Assembly: GCF_018613715.1 (NCBI RefSeq)
Contig: NZ_JAGGPT010000010.1
Span: forward strand, 1 to 64,000
DNA from: Chryseobacterium sp. ISL-6
Lineage (GTDB): Bacteria > Bacteroidota > Bacteroidia > Flavobacteriales > Weeksellaceae
Length of the DNA stretch: 64,000 bases
Direction of reading: 5' to 3'
Both the position numbers and the translations under genes were made by a program. Positions 27,453-33,299 of this stretch are shown here, piece by piece (the stretch's first letter is position 1; every line of letters begins with the position of its first letter). Below the pieces are notes generated by a model. The model had not been told where the DNA came from, searched no databases, and worked only from the letters and a program-made list of their open reading frames with translations.

Positions 27453-28904
27453 TTAAATAACCAATAGATCTACAAACTCATTAACATTGAGACTGATTAG
27501 TTTATCGTATTCTAAAGAGTTTTCTAACACTTGTCTTTGTTGTTTCTCAGGGAAAATACGAGCCAGATTAACTTTATATTTTTTAATCAACTCAGGAATA
27601 CCCTCATCTCTCCTTCTTTTATGTCCGATAGGATATTCTACCACTATTTCATCCAAAACAGTTCCGTCATTTAATTCAACTGTTAATGCATTAGCAATAG
27701 AACGTTTTTCAGGATCATGATAATCCTGAGTAAATTGAACTTCTTCAACACATTCTATTTTATCACGGAGTATATCAATTCTAGGGTCTGAAGCAATGTT
27801 ATCTTCATAATCTGCTGCAGTCAGCCTTCCATAAATAAGTGGCACTGCTACCATATACTGAATCGCATGATCACGGTCTGCAGGATTGTTTAATGGTCCT
27901 TTTTTATCAATAATCCGGATCGCAGCTTCATGCGTACGAATGGTAATTTTTTTGATATCGTCTGTAGTTTTACCCAAATTTTTTAATTTATGATGCAAGG
28001 TCATAGCGGCCTCTACTGCAGTCTGTGAATGGAATTCTGCTGGAAAAGAAATCTTGAATAATACGTTTTCCATCACATAAGAACTGTATTCACGCTGAAA
28101 TTTAAATTCATTTCCTTTAAATGAAACATCATAGAATCCCCATGTTTTAGCAGTAAGCACTGAAGGATATCCCATTTCTCCTGTTTTAGCAATTAATGCT
28201 AAACGTACCGCTCTTGAAGTAGCATCTCCTGCAGCCCATGATTTACGGCTTCCGGTATTTGGAGCATGACGGTAGGTTCTTAGAGACTGTCCATCTACAA
28301 AGGCAAGAGAGATAGCATTGATCAACTCATCACGGCTTAGTCCAATTAATTTCCCTACAACGGCAGTAGACGCAAGCTTTACTAATAGTACATGATCAAG
28401 ACCTACTCTGTTAAATGAATTTTCAAGAGCTATAACACCCTGAATTTCATGAGCCATAATCATTGCCTCTAACACTTGTTTCATTTTCAAAGGTGCTTTT
28501 CCTTCCGCAATATTGGTCCTTGATAACCAGTCTGCAGTTGCTAAAATACCGCCTAAGTTATCTGAAGGATGCCCCCATTCTGCGGCTAACCAGGTATCAT
28601 TAAAATCCAGCCAACGAATAATGGCCCCAATATTAAAAGCAGCCTGAACCGGATCTAACTGAAATTGAGTTCCCGGCACCTTAGCGCCATTCGGAACAAC
28701 AGTTCCTTTTACGATTGGTCCCAACAATTTGGTACAGGCAGGATAGGTTAAAGCTTCCAGCCCACATCCAATAGTATCTAAAAGGCAGTAATGAGCCGTT
28801 TTCCAGGCTAAATCATTTTTAATTTCGTAGTTCAATACGTAATCTGCAATATCGGTTAATACACGATCCGGTTGTGGTCTTTCATTTGAAATGTGTGATG
28901 ACAT
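27453..28904 (-). CDS. prpD: 2-methylcitrate dehydratase
   Basis: 483 residues of the MmgE/PrpD family, full length. Recognisable segments are [20 protein letters not shown] near the N-terminus, [20 protein letters not shown] (conserved around residues 105-125), [11 protein letters not shown], and [14 protein letters not shown]. It dehydrates 2-methylcitrate to 2-methylaconitate in the methylcitrate cycle that converts propionyl-CoA to pyruvate and succinate. It is third in a prpB-prpC-prpD operon, 45 bp after prpC. No acnD/prpF pair is present, so the usual PrpD plus aconitase route is implied. Confidence 0.95.
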
Positions 28905-28949: not shown

Positions 28950-30095
28950 TTATCTGCTTCCAATAGGAACGAAATCTTTGTTTTCAGGCCCTGTATAATT
29001 GGCACTTGGACGAATAATTTTTCCATCCTGTCTCTGCTCGATGATATGAGCACTCCATCCTGTTACCCTCGAAACGACAAATAATGGAGTGAACATTAAG
29101 GTGGGAACTCCCATTAAATGGTAAGATACCGCTGAAAACCAATCCAGATTAGGGAACATTTTCTTTTCGTCCCACATGATTTTTTCCAATCTTTCTGCAA
29201 TATTATAAAGCAACATATCTCCAGCTTCTTCGGAAAGTTCTTTAGCTACTTTTTTTATCACTACATTTCTTGGATCTGATATGGTGTATACCGGATGTCC
29301 GAATCCAATAATTACTTCCTTGTTGGCAATCCGTTTTTTAATATCTTCTTCCGCTTCATCAGGAGAATTATAACGGCTTTGGATCTCAAAAGCAACTTCA
29401 TTAGCACCGCCATGCTTAGGGCCTCTTAATGCTCCGATTGCTCCTGTTATACAGGAATAGAAATCCGAAGATGTACCAGCAATAACACGAGCAGTAAAAG
29501 TAGAAGCATTAAATTCATGCTCGGCATAGAGATTAAGGGATATTTCCATTGCTTTTACCCAGGAATCAGGAGCCTTTTTACCATGCAACAAGTGCAGGAA
29601 ATGTCCACCAATAGTATCATCATCAGTTTCTACATCAATCTCTTTCCCATTATGAGTATAGTGATACCAATATAAAAGCCCGGAACTGAATGATGCCAAT
29701 AATTTGTCAGCAATATCTCTTGCTCCTGCTACATTATGATCATCTTTTTCAGGCTGAATGCTTCCAATCGCTGAAACCATTGAACGCATGACATCCATCG
29801 GGTGTGCAGCTGCCGGAATACTTTTTAAGATATTTCTTACAGAGTGAGGCAGTCCTCTCAATGATTTTAATTTGGCTTTATAGTTTTTTAATTGAGCTGC
29901 TGTTGGTAATTGTCCATAAATAAGAAGGTAAGCTACCTCTTCAAATTGTGCTTTTTCCGCAAGATCCAAAATATCATAACCTCTGTAATGGAGATCATTT
30001 CCGCTTTTACCAACACTGCAGAGAGCAGTATTACCAGCTGTTACACCCGAAAGCGCTACGCTTTTTTTGGGCTTAAAAATAGGTTCATTATTCAT
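28950..30095 (-). CDS. prpC: 2-methylcitrate synthase
   Basis: 381 residues of the citrate synthase family. Catalytic His residues are in GPKHGGANE and GFGHPVY, and the catalytic Asp is probably in [16 protein letters not shown]. The length and the starts [11 protein letters not shown] and HPMDVMRS are typical of methylcitrate synthases rather than hexameric citrate synthase, and the position between prpB and prpD confirms it. It condenses propionyl-CoA with oxaloacetate. Its start overlaps the end of prpB by 8 bp. Confidence 0.95.
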
Positions 30096-30996
30096 TGATA
30101 TTTTTGTTCTTTTGAAATAGGTTATTTAATTTTTGTTCATAGTCGTGATAGCCGATACTTTTGTAAAGCTCGTCGCGGGTTTGCATAGTATCAAGTACAT
30201 TAACCTGAGTGCCATCCTTTCGGATATGTTCATAAACATTCTGAGCAGCTTTATTCGCTGCACGGAAGGCCGAAAGTGGATATAAAATCAAACCTACTCC
30301 AGCACTTTTAAGTTCATCAACAGTGTACATTCTGATCATTCCAAATTCGGTGATATTGGCTAATACGGGAATACCTGTTGCATCGACAAATTTTTGGTAA
30401 TAGCTTAAATCAGGAACAGCTTCCGCAAATATAAAATCTGCCCCGGCTTCTTTGTAAGCGACTGCTCTTTCCAATGTTCTTTCTAATCCTTCATTCGCAA
30501 AAGCATCTGTTCTTGCTCCGATAACGAAATTTTCATCTGTCCTTGCATCAACCGCAGCTTTTAAGCGGTCTACCATTTCATCTTTACTCACTACTTCTTT
30601 ACCTGGACGGTGTCCACAACGTTTTGCCCCTACCTGATCTTCAATATGTAAAGCTCCAGCTCCAGCTTTAATTAAGGATTTTACAGTTCTTGCCACATTA
30701 AATGCTGAAGGACCAAAGCCCGTATCCACGTCCACCAATAATGGCAGATCACATACATTGGTTATCCGTTGAATATCGATTAATACATCTTCAAGGGTTG
30801 TTATTCCCAGATCGGGAACTCCCAAAGAACCTGCAGCAACCCCTCCTCCTGAAAGATAAATGGCATTGAAACCTGCCTGCTGTGCCAACAATGCGTGATT
30901 AGCATTGATCGCTCCTACAATCTGAAGAGGACTTTCTTTTTGTATCGCCTCCCGAAACCGTAATCCGGCAGACTCTAAACTAACATGTTTACTCAT
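30088..30996 (-). CDS. prpB: Methylisocitrate lyase
   Basis: 302 residues from [14 protein letters not shown] (ATG at 30996; the upstream ATG at 31047 adds 17 unlikely residues). PEP mutase/isocitrate lyase superfamily: metal-binding Asp89 and Asp91 in [10 protein letters not shown], and the active-site loop KRCGH (125-129). It cleaves 2-methylisocitrate into pyruvate and succinate. It is first of the prp operon. A cobalamin riboswitch lies 380 bp upstream on the same strand, which suggests B12-responsive expression (see findings). Confidence 0.95.
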
Positions 30997-31374
30997 CTTT
31001 AATATTATTGTTCGTTTTAATGTATTTAACTCACATACCATCAACAATTTAAAAAATTATCTTTTTTAAATTCTGTTAAATTAATCAAACGACCTATAAA
31101 CCTTAGCGAACGGCTGAATGGGTATACAATCATCTTTTTAATGTTTATAAATCATTATAAAAAGAGGGTGATAAACTTCACAATACTTTGTAAGAGAGAA
31201 AATTATGGAAAGGGGTGATACGCCAGAGTTATAGGTACAGCATAACTTTAAAAGCTAATACTACAAACTATCTTTAAATTATGATAATGTACCCGGAAAA
31301 AGTTGTGCACGATTATCAAAACGTATCATACCTGACTATAAGCTTCAGATCGCGAAAGCATCGTCAATTCGAAA
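30997..31374 (-). other. Long untranslated stretch between the cobalamin riboswitch and prpB
   Basis: No credible gene lies in these ~380 bp on either strand. On the minus strand the only early ATG after the riboswitch opens an 11-codon frame (MLSRSEAYSQV). An AT-rich imperfect hairpin is near 31135-31165 (CTTTTTAATG and its complement). The stretch is either a long leader of prpBCD or the scar of a deleted riboswitch-controlled gene. Confidence 0.5.
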
Positions 31375-31545
31375 TAGGCAGGTCTCCTGACTTGTAACGA
31401 TTTTTATCGTCCTTCCCATTCACAAGAGCAAACAGTGGACCTTGATTGATAAAAACCTTTTGAGTGTTACTTACAGTTGCGCGACAGTTCGTGATTTACA
31501 CACGATTCCCTTTTAATTCACAGCTAAGTGTAACCAGTTTCGGTT
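31375..31545 (-). ncRNA. Cobalamin (B12) riboswitch
   Basis: Read on the minus strand, the element has the order of conserved parts of this class: a CTGGTT entry (near 31540), AAAAGGGAATCGTGTG with its partner CACGA, the core CTGTCGCGCAACTGTAAG, a CCACTG segment, GGGAAGG, and the B12-box end AGTCAGGAGACCTGCC (31376-31391 on plus). The class binds adenosyl- or methylcobalamin and lowers expression of the downstream gene when cobalamin is present. The next gene on this strand is prpB, about 380 bp on. Identification of the aptamer is firm; the target is inference. Confidence 0.92.
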
Positions 31546-31883
31546 GATAAAGAAGTTTAAATGAACTCCTTGGTGGTAAATATAACTATTTTATTGAAAC
31601 GCTAATATATTAATTCACGAACAAGCGTTAGGATTTTACAACAGCCTGTAAATATGACAATTAAAAGTAATTCAAAATTTTAAAAAAATAACTAAATGAC
31701 AAAAATCATATAAAAATAAATTGTCGAAAAGGAATGCTAAGGACGTTTTTTAGAAAAAACATATGCTATAAATATCAAAAAAGATCTCATGTGAATTGAG
31801 AGAAAACTAAAATTCATAATCACCTCTTCCTGTTTCATTTTGAAAAAAGTCAGGTTAAAAGTATACTATATTGCAAAAAACAG
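31546..31883. other. AT-rich intergenic region upstream of the riboswitch
   Basis: It presumably holds the promoter for the riboswitch transcript on the minus strand and the end of the MocR transcript; I cannot place either with confidence. No gene or repeat is supported. Confidence 0.4.
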
Positions 31884-33299
31884 CTATAAAAGCTCTTTAA
31901 CTTTCTCGCCTGCATTTTTCAAAGATATTAAACTGTGAGAAGTAATACGGTCAGCAAAAACAATCCGAAAATGATGACTAAACTGATCTGTCAAACTAAA
32001 GATTTCTCCTGGGGTAAATAAAATCCTCTGGTCATCGCAATACCTGTAAAACATCTTCATATCAACTGCTTTTGATAAGCTTCCCCAAATGCTGTATCCC
32101 CCTTGCGGATCCTCAAAATATGAACCCTCTGGAAAAGAAGTACGTAACGCCTCTAAAACATCTCTAGCCTGATCATACAATTGTTTACGAAACGAACGTA
32201 AATGCTTACTATAGCTGTGATCTTCAAGTAATTTAAGCAATAACTCCTGATATATTGGAGCTACCGATCTTCCCAGAGAAAACCTCAGCCTCTCTGCCTT
32301 TGCATGGTACCTCCCTGAATGTAACCAACCGAGACGAATACCCGGTGCCAATGTTTTAGAAAAAGAAGAAAAGGTCATCACCCAGCCATATTCATCAAAA
32401 TTGCGTATGCTGGAAGGACGTTCATCACCAAAATAAAGATCTCCATACAGATCATTTTCAATGATCGGAAACTGATGATCCATGGCAATGGATAACAGCT
32501 CCTTTTTGGTATTATCAGTCATTAACCTCCCTGTTGGATTATGGAAATTTGGGGTAACAACAAGTGCTTTGATATCATTGGCAGCAGAAACCTTTTTCAA
32601 ATGTTCTGTGTCAAATCCGTCTTCACCATGAATAGGGATTTCCAGGACTTTAAGCTTAAGATTAGTGATCACCTCCAGAACAGAAAAAACACATGGGCTT
32701 TCAACAGCAATAAGATCACCCGCATTGGTAACACTTGCCAAAGCAATATACAGTGCCTGCAATGCACCATCTGTGATGATCAATTCTTCAGGATTGAATC
32801 TACATCCATATTGTAAGGCTCTGTCAGCTATCTGGCTCCTCAATTCTGGTAGACCATTGGATGGATAATAGCGAAGAAGAGAAGCTCCTTTTTCACGAAT
32901 GACTTCCTGCATCTTTCTTAAAATAAGCTTTTGTGGTATCAACAGATCGGTTGGGGTTGCTGCATTAAAAGAGCTATATTCAGAAGGTTTATTTCTGACA
33001 GAGGTCAACGCAATATTTTTATTGAAAGCCCCATTTTTCGCGACAGCATATGGTTCTAATAAAGGCTCAGAAATGCTTTGATGCACATCCGAAGCGACAT
33101 AATACCCGGAACGAGGAACGTTTTTAACCAATCCTTTAATAACCAGAAGATCATAACCGCTTTGAATGGAGCTTATACTTAAATGATAGTCCGCCTTAAT
33201 TTCCCTGACCGAAGGTAATCGGGTTCCCGGTTTTAATATTCCTTTTTTTATTTTGTTTTCAATGATAGAAGTAAAAATCTCATATCTGTACGTCTGCAT
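31884..33299 (-). CDS. MocR-type regulator (GntR winged helix fused to PLP aminotransferase fold)
   Basis: 471 residues. The N-terminal GntR winged helix (about 1-72) has KPGTRLPSVREIKADYHLS. The rest is a class I aminotransferase-like domain with YPSNGLPELR, VTPNFHNPTGR and the PLP-lysine motif SSFSKTLAPGIRLGWL. MocR proteins sense PLP or an amino acid and regulate nearby, often divergent, genes. The divergent neighbour is a GNAT-like protein, and the 135-bp gap carries ordered repeats. Two -7-like TACATTTG words sit directly upstream of the gene. Confidence 0.93.
   Translation of the reverse strand: MQTYRYEIFTSIIENKIKKGILKPGTRLPSVREIKADYHLSISSIQSGYDLLVIKGLVKNVPRSGYYVASDVHQSISEPLLEPYAVAKNGAFNKNIALTSVRNKPSEYSSFNAATPTDLLIPQKLILRKMQEVIREKGASLLRYYPSNGLPELRSQIADRALQYGCRFNPEELIITDGALQALYIALASVTNAGDLIAVESPCVFSVLEVITNLKLKVLEIPIHGEDGFDTEHLKKVSAANDIKALVVTPNFHNPTGRLMTDNTKKELLSIAMDHQFPIIENDLYGDLYFGDERPSSIRNFDEYGWVMTFSSFSKTLAPGIRLGWLHSGRYHAKAERLRFSLGRSVAPIYQELLLKLLEDHSYSKHLRSFRKQLYDQARDVLEALRTSFPEGSYFEDPQGGYSIWGSLSKAVDMKMFYRYCDDQRILFTPGEIFSLTDQFSHHFRIVFADRITSHSLISLKNAGEKVKELL

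What the first reader, a model, noticed from the sequence alone, without database searches (positions are those of the whole stretch)
30088..31545. Cobalamin riboswitch upstream of the methylcitrate-cycle operon
A clear B12 aptamer (31375-31545, minus strand) lies on the same strand as prpBCD with no gene between, only ~380 bp. Propionyl-CoA can be used through the B12-dependent methylmalonyl-CoA mutase or the B12-independent methylcitrate cycle. B12 riboswitches elsewhere silence B12-independent isoenzymes (metE, class Ia/III RNR), so control of prp would be a logical, and to my knowledge little described, extension. The weak point is the long gap: the riboswitch may be the leader of a deleted gene, such as a B12 receptor.
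Basis: partly seen in the sequence, partly recalled or inferred. Interest (0 to 1): 0.72.

Follow-up and report, generated by a model that had tools for sequence, protein, structure and literature searches.

The report
Vitamin B12 switch before propionate genes
A vitamin B12-sensing RNA switch sits in front of the genes that break down propionate without B12, is kept there in the related bacteria examined, and probably turns these genes off when B12 is present so that the B12-dependent route can take over.

Summary
An RF00174 cobalamin riboswitch (95.6 bits) lies at 31360-31553, minus strand, 363 nt before prpB-prpC-prpD. In the window's genus (Chryseobacterium, judged from named relatives) all 24 distinct prpB loci found carry it on the same strand, 363-462 nt upstream of the prpB ATG, with a conserved promoter-like box before it and 38 bases (32 invariant) after it; no conserved gene lies in the gap. 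Elizabethkingia occulta has the same unit; one Pedobacter has one that looks separately recruited. Among 33 further prp genomes, the five with a high-scoring methylmalonyl-CoA-mutase chain are exactly the five with a riboswitch before prpB. In the other 28 neither was found, though 16 have cobalamin riboswitches elsewhere. The prp riboswitches group with those of metE, queH and other bypass genes, apart from those of TonB receptors. Best reading: B12 turns the methylcitrate cycle off, perhaps by stopping transcription in the long leader. Ligand binding, expression and the terminator are not shown, and a terminator test was negative. B12 riboswitches silencing B12-independent isoenzymes are known; this target pathway was not seen in nine searches of an open-access library.

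The parts
31576..31584 (-). Promoter-like box TATATTTAC, about 31 nt before the aptamer (resembles the Bacteroidota -7 element TAnnTTTG; the consensus is recalled)
   Evidence: Present in 24 of 24 distinct Chryseobacterium leaders at 31 nt (23) or 32 nt (1) before the aptamer start, followed by CACCAAGGAG in 22 of 24.
31360..31553 (-). Cobalamin riboswitch aptamer, RF00174
   Evidence: 95.6 bits, E 1.5e-22, complete 1-189 of 189; 24 of 24 distinct Chryseobacterium prpB loci have it.
31342..31359 (-). P13-like hairpin directly after the aptamer (GCTTT...GAAGC around a UCGCG loop; named by analogy with the kissing-loop hairpin of cobalamin riboswitches, recalled)
   Evidence: Only helix in the RNAalifold consensus of 33 post-aptamer segments of prp, metE, queH, mesX and thioesterase riboswitches.
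31335..31342 (-). Possible switch segment CTTATAGT, complementary to ACTGTAAG (31470-31477, minus) in the conserved aptamer core and overlapping the hairpin's 3' end
   Evidence: CTTATAGT in 20 and CTTACAGT in 5 of 26 distinct leaders; ACTGTAAG in 27 of 27 entries. It was the best duplex partner in 20 of 26 rows. No covariation support: nearly invariant.
31322..31359 (-). Conserved 38-nt post-aptamer block
   Evidence: 32 of 38 columns invariant in 24 distinct Chryseobacterium leaders; nearly identical in Elizabethkingia occulta L127.
31282..31318 (-). Candidate attenuator hairpin TGATAAT...ATTATCA; in most relatives a hairpin at this place runs into a U-rich tract, here the tract is weak
   Evidence: Seen in single-sequence folds; not stronger than in shuffled leaders. 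Tentative.
30088..30996 (-). prpB, methylisocitrate lyase
   Evidence: TIGR02317 412 bits (cut-off 354), NF008455 509 bits (cut-off 353).
28950..30095 (-). prpC, 2-methylcitrate synthase/citrate synthase
   Evidence: NF009006 700 bits (cut-off 550); overlaps the end of prpB.
27453..28904 (-). prpD, 2-methylcitrate dehydratase
   Evidence: TIGR02330 861 bits (cut-off 458).

Best explanation
This is the B12-sensing 5' leader of the methylcitrate-cycle operon. Transcription probably starts just upstream of the aptamer (inferred from a conserved promoter-like box). When adenosylcobalamin is plentiful the aptamer folds, the following hairpin docks, and prpBCD expression is shut off; propionyl-CoA then goes through the B12-dependent methylmalonyl-CoA mutase. 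Without B12 the leader refolds, possibly by pairing the segment CTTATAGT with the aptamer core ACTGTAAG, and prpBCD is expressed as a bypass. Because prpB starts 363 nt beyond the aptamer, the switch is more likely to act on transcription within the leader (intrinsic or Rho-dependent termination) than by hiding the prpB ribosome site. Shown: the aptamer, the operon, the conserved linkage, the co-occurrence with the mutase, the grouping with other bypass riboswitches. Inferred: ligand, direction of control, promoter, refolding, termination.
For: RF00174 complete at 95.6 bits. Also Elizabethkingia occulta L127 and Pedobacter cryoconitis M2T3 L123. Promoter-like box in 24 of 24 and 38-nt block with 32 invariant columns. 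The upstream gene is the window's MocR homologue in only 3 of the 27 leader entries, so the riboswitch keeps with prpB while the neighbour differs. In 33 further prp genomes a PF01642 match at E below 1e-220 occurs in exactly the 5 with a riboswitch before prpB; within-genus contrasts: Pedobacter M2T3 has both and Pedobacter Xaverov 94 neither, E. occulta both and E. argenteiflava neither. In a tree of 24 riboswitches, prp, metE, queH, mesX and thioesterase riboswitches are split from the TonB-receptor clade by a branch with support 1.000.
Against: No expression, binding or transcript data. The window's own assembly lacks the large mutase subunit (best PF01642 match 1.3e-97); it also lacks prfA, which lies about 7 kb from the mutase gene in a relative, so an assembly gap is likely but not proven. 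Hairpin-plus-U-tract scores in the leaders do not exceed dinucleotide shuffles (mean -8.2 against -8.4), and even the true aptamer has an ordinary folding z-score. The window's own hairpin lacks a good U tract. The simple sigma-70 scan lists two minus-strand promoter-like sites inside the gap. The co-occurrence rests on few independent events. The Pedobacter mutase chain has 515 aa and misses the full-length mutase equivalog cut-off (659 against 876 bits), so its substrate is uncertain.
Confidence: 0.82

Rival explanations
1. The riboswitch is the leader of a lost gene (for example a B12 receptor) and now stands before prpB by accident.
For: Long gap of 363 nt without a gene; receptor leaders in this genome are much tighter, e.g. 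33 nt from aptamer to the start codon of a TonB receptor.
Against: 24 of 24 distinct Chryseobacterium loci keep the arrangement with a similar gap (363-462 nt) and no conserved ORF in it. The metE leader of the same genome also has a 412-nt gap. The prp riboswitches group with bypass-gene riboswitches, not with receptor ones.
Confidence: 0.03
2. The riboswitch controls a short leader transcript or small RNA, while prpBCD has its own promoter further down and answers mainly to propionate.
For: The leader beyond the aptamer has further conserved stretches. The simple scan finds a TTGTGA-18-TATAAT site at 31183-31154 in the gap, and TTGTGAAG-like sequence recurs at that place in many relatives. 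prp operons in other bacteria often have a propionate-responsive regulator (recalled).
Against: TAnnTTTG occurs in the gap in only 7 of 27 leader entries, fewer than the 9 expected from shuffles (0.34 per gap), and not at one conserved place, whereas the box before the aptamer is in 24 of 24. Co-occurrence with the mutase fits control of prp.
Confidence: 0.12
3. The switch works by translation of a leader ORF (for example 11 codons from the ATG in the post-aptamer block) coupled to Rho-dependent polarity, as in B12 leaders with uORFs.
For: All 24 Chryseobacterium leaders share the block with an ATG next to the hairpin and a stop 11 codons on, by inspection of the alignment. uORFs modulate two B12 riboswitches of Mycobacterium tuberculosis (PMC11260477, abstract and outline only).
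Against: The block is conserved base by base, as RNA structure would require, so coding is not shown. The related thioesterase leaders lack the ATG. Longer ORFs in the gap vary from 11 to 74 codons and are not conserved.
Confidence: 0.1
4. B12 activates rather than represses prpBCD.
For: Direction cannot be read from sequence alone; B12-dependent activation through an antisense RNA is described for Listeria propanediol genes (mentioned in passages of PMC11575231).
Against: The prp riboswitches group with those of metE and queH, B12-independent alternatives for which repression is the sensible sign. No antisense arrangement is evident here.
Confidence: 0.05

Closest known systems
Cobalamin riboswitch RF00174 upstream of metE (B12-independent methionine synthase), e.g. 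Mycobacterium tuberculosis and, here, the window's own genome (C11:47214-47398)
   Same: Same aptamer family, position before a B12-independent alternative to a B12 enzyme, the same post-aptamer hairpin and a long leader (412 nt for metE here).
   Different: Different target pathway (propionyl-CoA disposal). The M. tuberculosis metE switch is described as a translational OFF switch (PMC11260477 abstract; passages of PMC12713380), which the long prp leader makes less likely here.
B12 riboswitch regulons with the category 'isozymes of B12-dependent enzymes' (Sun et al. 2013, PMC3766115)
   Same: The same regulatory category (passages).
   Different: The main text has no occurrence of propionate, prpB or methylcitrate. 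Its Bacteroidota sample is listed as Bacteroidaceae. Its supplements were not read.
Cobalamin riboswitch upstream of queH (B12-independent epoxyqueuosine reductase), here Pedobacter L246
   Same: Same aptamer-hairpin module; queH riboswitch and Pedobacter prp riboswitch 85% identical (QueH by Pfam).
   Different: Target is tRNA modification.
TonB receptor (btuB-type) cobalamin riboswitches of the same genomes
   Same: Same Rfam family.
   Different: Separate clade (support 1.000). In btuB-type leaders such as L002 the post-aptamer hairpin carries GGAGG shortly before the start codon, which the prp leader lacks.

Membership tests
Cobalamin riboswitch (RF00174) | Sequence and structure match above the curated score | tested here: met
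   95.6 bits against 31.5, full model.
Cobalamin riboswitch (RF00174) | Binds a cobalamin | not testable with these tools
   Needs in-line probing or calorimetry.
B12 riboswitch that silences a B12-independent isoenzyme | Lies in the 5' region of genes for the B12-independent route, same strand, no gene between | tested here: met
   prpB, prpC, prpD by NCBIfam; 24 of 24 distinct Chryseobacterium loci.
B12 riboswitch that silences a B12-independent isoenzyme | The genome also has the B12-dependent route | tested here: inconclusive
   Met in 19 of 19 tested Chryseobacterium relatives with prp (15, G393, 3; 4 of the 23 relatives not tested) and in E. occulta. Not found in the window's own assembly, which also lacks prfA.
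B12 riboswitch that silences a B12-independent isoenzyme | Expression falls when B12 is added | not testable with these tools
   No expression data.
B12 riboswitch that silences a B12-independent isoenzyme | A recognisable expression platform (terminator or sequestered ribosome site) | tested here: inconclusive
   Post-aptamer hairpin conserved; candidate terminator not above shuffles; complementarity of one arm to downstream bases modestly above shuffles (mean -5.6 against -4.5 +/- 0.3, 0 of 200, related sequences not corrected for).
Methylcitrate-cycle operon prpBCD | All three enzymes above curated cut-offs, adjacent, one strand | tested here: met
TonB receptor (btuB-type) riboswitch leader | Groups with receptor riboswitches; ribosome site in the hairpin loop near the start codon | tested here: not met
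   Other clade; no GGAGG in the hairpin and start codon 363 nt away.

The most novel reading that the evidence does not exclude
Bacteroidota carry a distinct lineage of cobalamin riboswitches with its own non-ribosome-site hairpin, used as a module for 'B12 bypass' genes (metE, queH, mesX, an acyl-CoA thioesterase, prpBCD) and recruited at least twice to the methylcitrate operon wherever a B12-dependent mutase is also present; it acts in a long leader by a platform not yet described, based on a segment that competes with the aptamer core.
Probability: 0.45. Interest if true: 0.65.

Novelty: new member of a known kind. Interest (0 to 1): 0.55.

Why it matters
Propionyl-CoA is toxic and must be disposed of; bacteria use a B12-dependent mutase or the B12-independent methylcitrate cycle. 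A direct B12 switch on the second route would complete the set of riboswitch-controlled B12 alternatives alongside metE, ribonucleotide reductase and queH, and would let environmental B12 decide how a Bacteroidota cell handles propionate. It gives a sharp test: prpBCD should be B12-repressed in strains with the leader and B12-blind in relatives without it. It would also let riboswitch position predict which prp genomes depend on B12.

Tried and rejected
Deleted-gene leader: rejected by conservation in 24 of 24 distinct loci and by the tree.

Intrinsic terminator as a firm claim: not kept. A hairpin-plus-U-tract search in the first 130 nt after the aptamer gave a mean of -8.2 kcal/mol in 27 leader entries against -8.4 +/- 3.6 in 54 shuffles. 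Folding z-scores were uninformative, since the aptamer itself averages -0.37 in 24 leaders. A direct test of one arm gave a modest excess. The 25-row consensus fold has only 4 pairs with changes on both sides among 85 pairs, and it pairs aptamer bases with far leader bases. I take no helix in the gap as proven.

Second promoter in the gap: TAnnTTTG in 7 of 27 leader entries, at or below the shuffled rate; two minus-strand sigma-70-like sites in the gap remain listed.

Conserved leader ORF: longest same-strand ORFs in the gap range from 10 to 74 codons and differ between leaders.

Loss of the mutase in the window's own genome as evidence against the choice model: not accepted, because prfA, about 7 kb from the mutase gene in G393, is missing as well. 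The DNA search scored only 40 of its 194 candidates.

Same-strand riboswitch-prpB outside Bacteroidota: all 80 named PrpB loci were scanned; 9 of 80 have it, 7 Chryseobacterium, 1 Elizabethkingia, 1 Pedobacter. The list of 80 is capped and leans to close relatives; some loci hold little upstream DNA (L143 328 bases, L176 602, L158 858). One Chitinophagaceae MAG (L131) has a riboswitch before a divergent metE next to prpB. Of the phylum-sample loci, L098-L104 (7 distant ones) were not scanned.

Full report
The observation. cmscan of the window finds one Rfam match over its cut-off, RF00174 at 31360-31553 on the minus strand, 95.6 bits, complete. Downstream on the same strand lie prpB, prpC and prpD, each above NCBIfam equivalog cut-offs. 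The aptamer ends 363 nt before the prpB ATG at 30996. The nearest upstream gene, a MocR-type regulator (below the cut-offs of the named MocR equivalogs), ends at 31884.

The organism. The closest named PrpB loci with this arrangement are Chryseobacterium; the window's genome has 5.2 Mb in 24 contigs and five RF00174 matches. By inspection of the downstream ORFs with Pfam checks, these stand before two TonB-receptor genes (L091 and L090; PF00593 and PF07715), metE (PF01717 and PF08267), a hot-dog thioesterase (PF03061; related to YciA but below that equivalog cut-off) and prpB.

Conservation. In 98 sampled genomes of the genus (own included), 16 have a true PrpB (86-100% identity; the weaker hits are 25-45% identical). 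All 16 loci have RF00174 before prpB on the same strand. Five more same-genus loci from the order sample also have it, 5 of 5. Named records add three further distinct leaders (L118, L119, L120). Altogether 24 of 24 distinct leaders. The gap to the ATG is 363-462 nt. TATATTTAC stands 31 (23 leaders) or 32 (1) nt before the aptamer, and the 38 bases after the aptamer have 32 invariant columns. No ORF is conserved in the gap, and the MocR homologue is upstream in only 3 of 27 leader entries. A leader left behind by a deleted gene would not look like this.

Outside the genus. In one search, 13 of 18 scanned loci lack RF00174 at E up to 0.01; these are all from other genera, among them PrpB loci at 78%, 83%, 73% and 68% identity. 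L095 has only about 366 nt of upstream DNA, so it is weak evidence. All 80 named PrpB loci were scanned: 9 have the riboswitch before prpB on the same strand, namely 7 of 7 Chryseobacterium, Elizabethkingia occulta (gap 320) and Pedobacter cryoconitis M2T3 (gap 192 to the ATG). Elizabethkingia argenteiflava and Pedobacter cryoconitis Xaverov 94 lack it.

Co-occurrence with the B12-dependent route. Thirty-three prp genomes besides the genus samples were searched for the mutase family PF01642 and for RF00174. Five have a match at E below 1e-220: the three Chryseobacterium, E. occulta and Pedobacter M2T3. Those are the five with a riboswitch before prpB. Of the other 28, 14 have weaker matches (1e-80 to 1e-124, IcmF-like fused proteins by length, and a split pair in Myroides that misses the cut-offs) and 14 have none; no riboswitch was found before prpB in any of them, although 16 of the 28 have RF00174 elsewhere. 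In the genus, 97 of 98 genomes have the large mutase subunit, including the 15 other prp genomes of that sample. Caveats: few independent events; unequal assembly quality; and the Pedobacter chain is a 515-aa N-terminal-type mutase below the full-length equivalog cut-off, 47% identical to the Chryseobacterium one. The window's own assembly lacks the large subunit, but also lacks prfA, which is near the mutase gene in G393 (PrfA and MeaB identified), so a gap in the assembly is the likelier cause.

Kinship of the riboswitch. A FastTree of 24 riboswitches with 35 nt of downstream sequence separates two groups at a branch with support 1.000: TonB-receptor leaders on one side; metE, prp, queH, mesX and thioesterase leaders on the other (QueH, MesX, MetE and thioesterase by Pfam; the labels of most receptor leaders are by eye, two of the window's genome checked). 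The Chryseobacterium and Elizabethkingia prp riboswitches form one group (0.976). The Pedobacter prp riboswitch falls beside metE (0.79) and is 85% identical to metE and queH riboswitches, 80% to the window's, which suggests a second recruitment. The support for its exact place is weak.

Mechanism. The conserved hairpin after the aptamer (31342-31359) is the only helix in the consensus fold of 33 related post-aptamer segments. Its 3' end runs into CTTATAGT, which can pair with the aptamer core ACTGTAAG: CTTATAGT or CTTACAGT occur in 25 of 26 distinct leaders and ACTGTAAG in 27 of 27 entries; it was the best duplex in 20 of 26 rows. This offers an on/off competition, but being nearly invariant it has no covariation behind it. 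prpB begins 363 nt further on, so direct masking of its ribosome site is unlikely; stopping transcription in the leader is the natural reading. Evidence for a terminator is thin: hairpins followed by U-rich tracts recur 45-85 nt past the aptamer in most leaders but are no stronger than in shuffles, and the window's own copy has a poor U tract. Rho-dependent termination is an open alternative. The metE leader of the same genome has the same hairpin and a 412-nt gap, so the long leader is not peculiar to prp.

Literature. Nine searches of an open-access library gave no paper describing a cobalamin riboswitch before prp genes. I saw passages of PMC11071462, PMC11287211, PMC3766115, PMC4428469, PMC12713380, PMC11575231 and PMC2700814 and the abstract and outline of PMC11260477. 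No supplement was read, and most subscription papers are not in the library, so absence there is not proof of novelty.

Verdict. A genuine, conserved cobalamin riboswitch on the methylcitrate operon: a known riboswitch family and known logic applied to a pathway for which I found no earlier description. Confidence that it controls prpBCD in response to B12 by turning it off: 0.82. Confidence in the termination mechanism alone: about 0.5.

Noticed in passing
L088:2699-3082 (G000:C19, aptamer at 135404-135581): A cobalamin riboswitch stands before a hot-dog acyl-CoA thioesterase in the window's genome, and in 19 of 29 best-scoring riboswitch loci of the genus. It may be a second outlet for propionyl- or methylmalonyl-CoA when B12 is short; its substrate is unknown.
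   Followed up: partly
L246 and L245 (Pedobacter Xaverov 94): Cobalamin riboswitches before queH (B12-independent epoxyqueuosine reductase) and before mesX (putative oxygenase).
   Followed up: partly
L131:2676-2869 (Chitinophagaceae MAG): A cobalamin riboswitch before metE lies between divergent metE and prpB, so one intergenic region separates two B12-bypass genes.
   Followed up: no
window genome G000: prfA, an essential gene, is missing from the assembly together with the large mutase subunit, which points to a missing stretch of the assembly.
   Followed up: partly
L036, L041, L039 and similar leaders, about 200 nt before prpB: Several prp leaders have an ORF of 58-74 codons in the gap, often starting at ATGTACC or ATGGTGTACC-like sequence; it is absent or interrupted in others.
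   Followed up: no
window 31154-31183, minus strand: A TTGTGA-18-TATAAT promoter-like site in the gap, at a place where TTGTGAAG-like sequence recurs in many relatives; it may be a regulator site or a second promoter.
   Followed up: partly
L123 (Pedobacter cryoconitis M2T3): Its PrpB is 90% identical to the window's although the genus is distant and its riboswitch is of another subgroup, which suggests transfer of the prp operon between lineages with separate recruitment of the riboswitch.
   Followed up: partly
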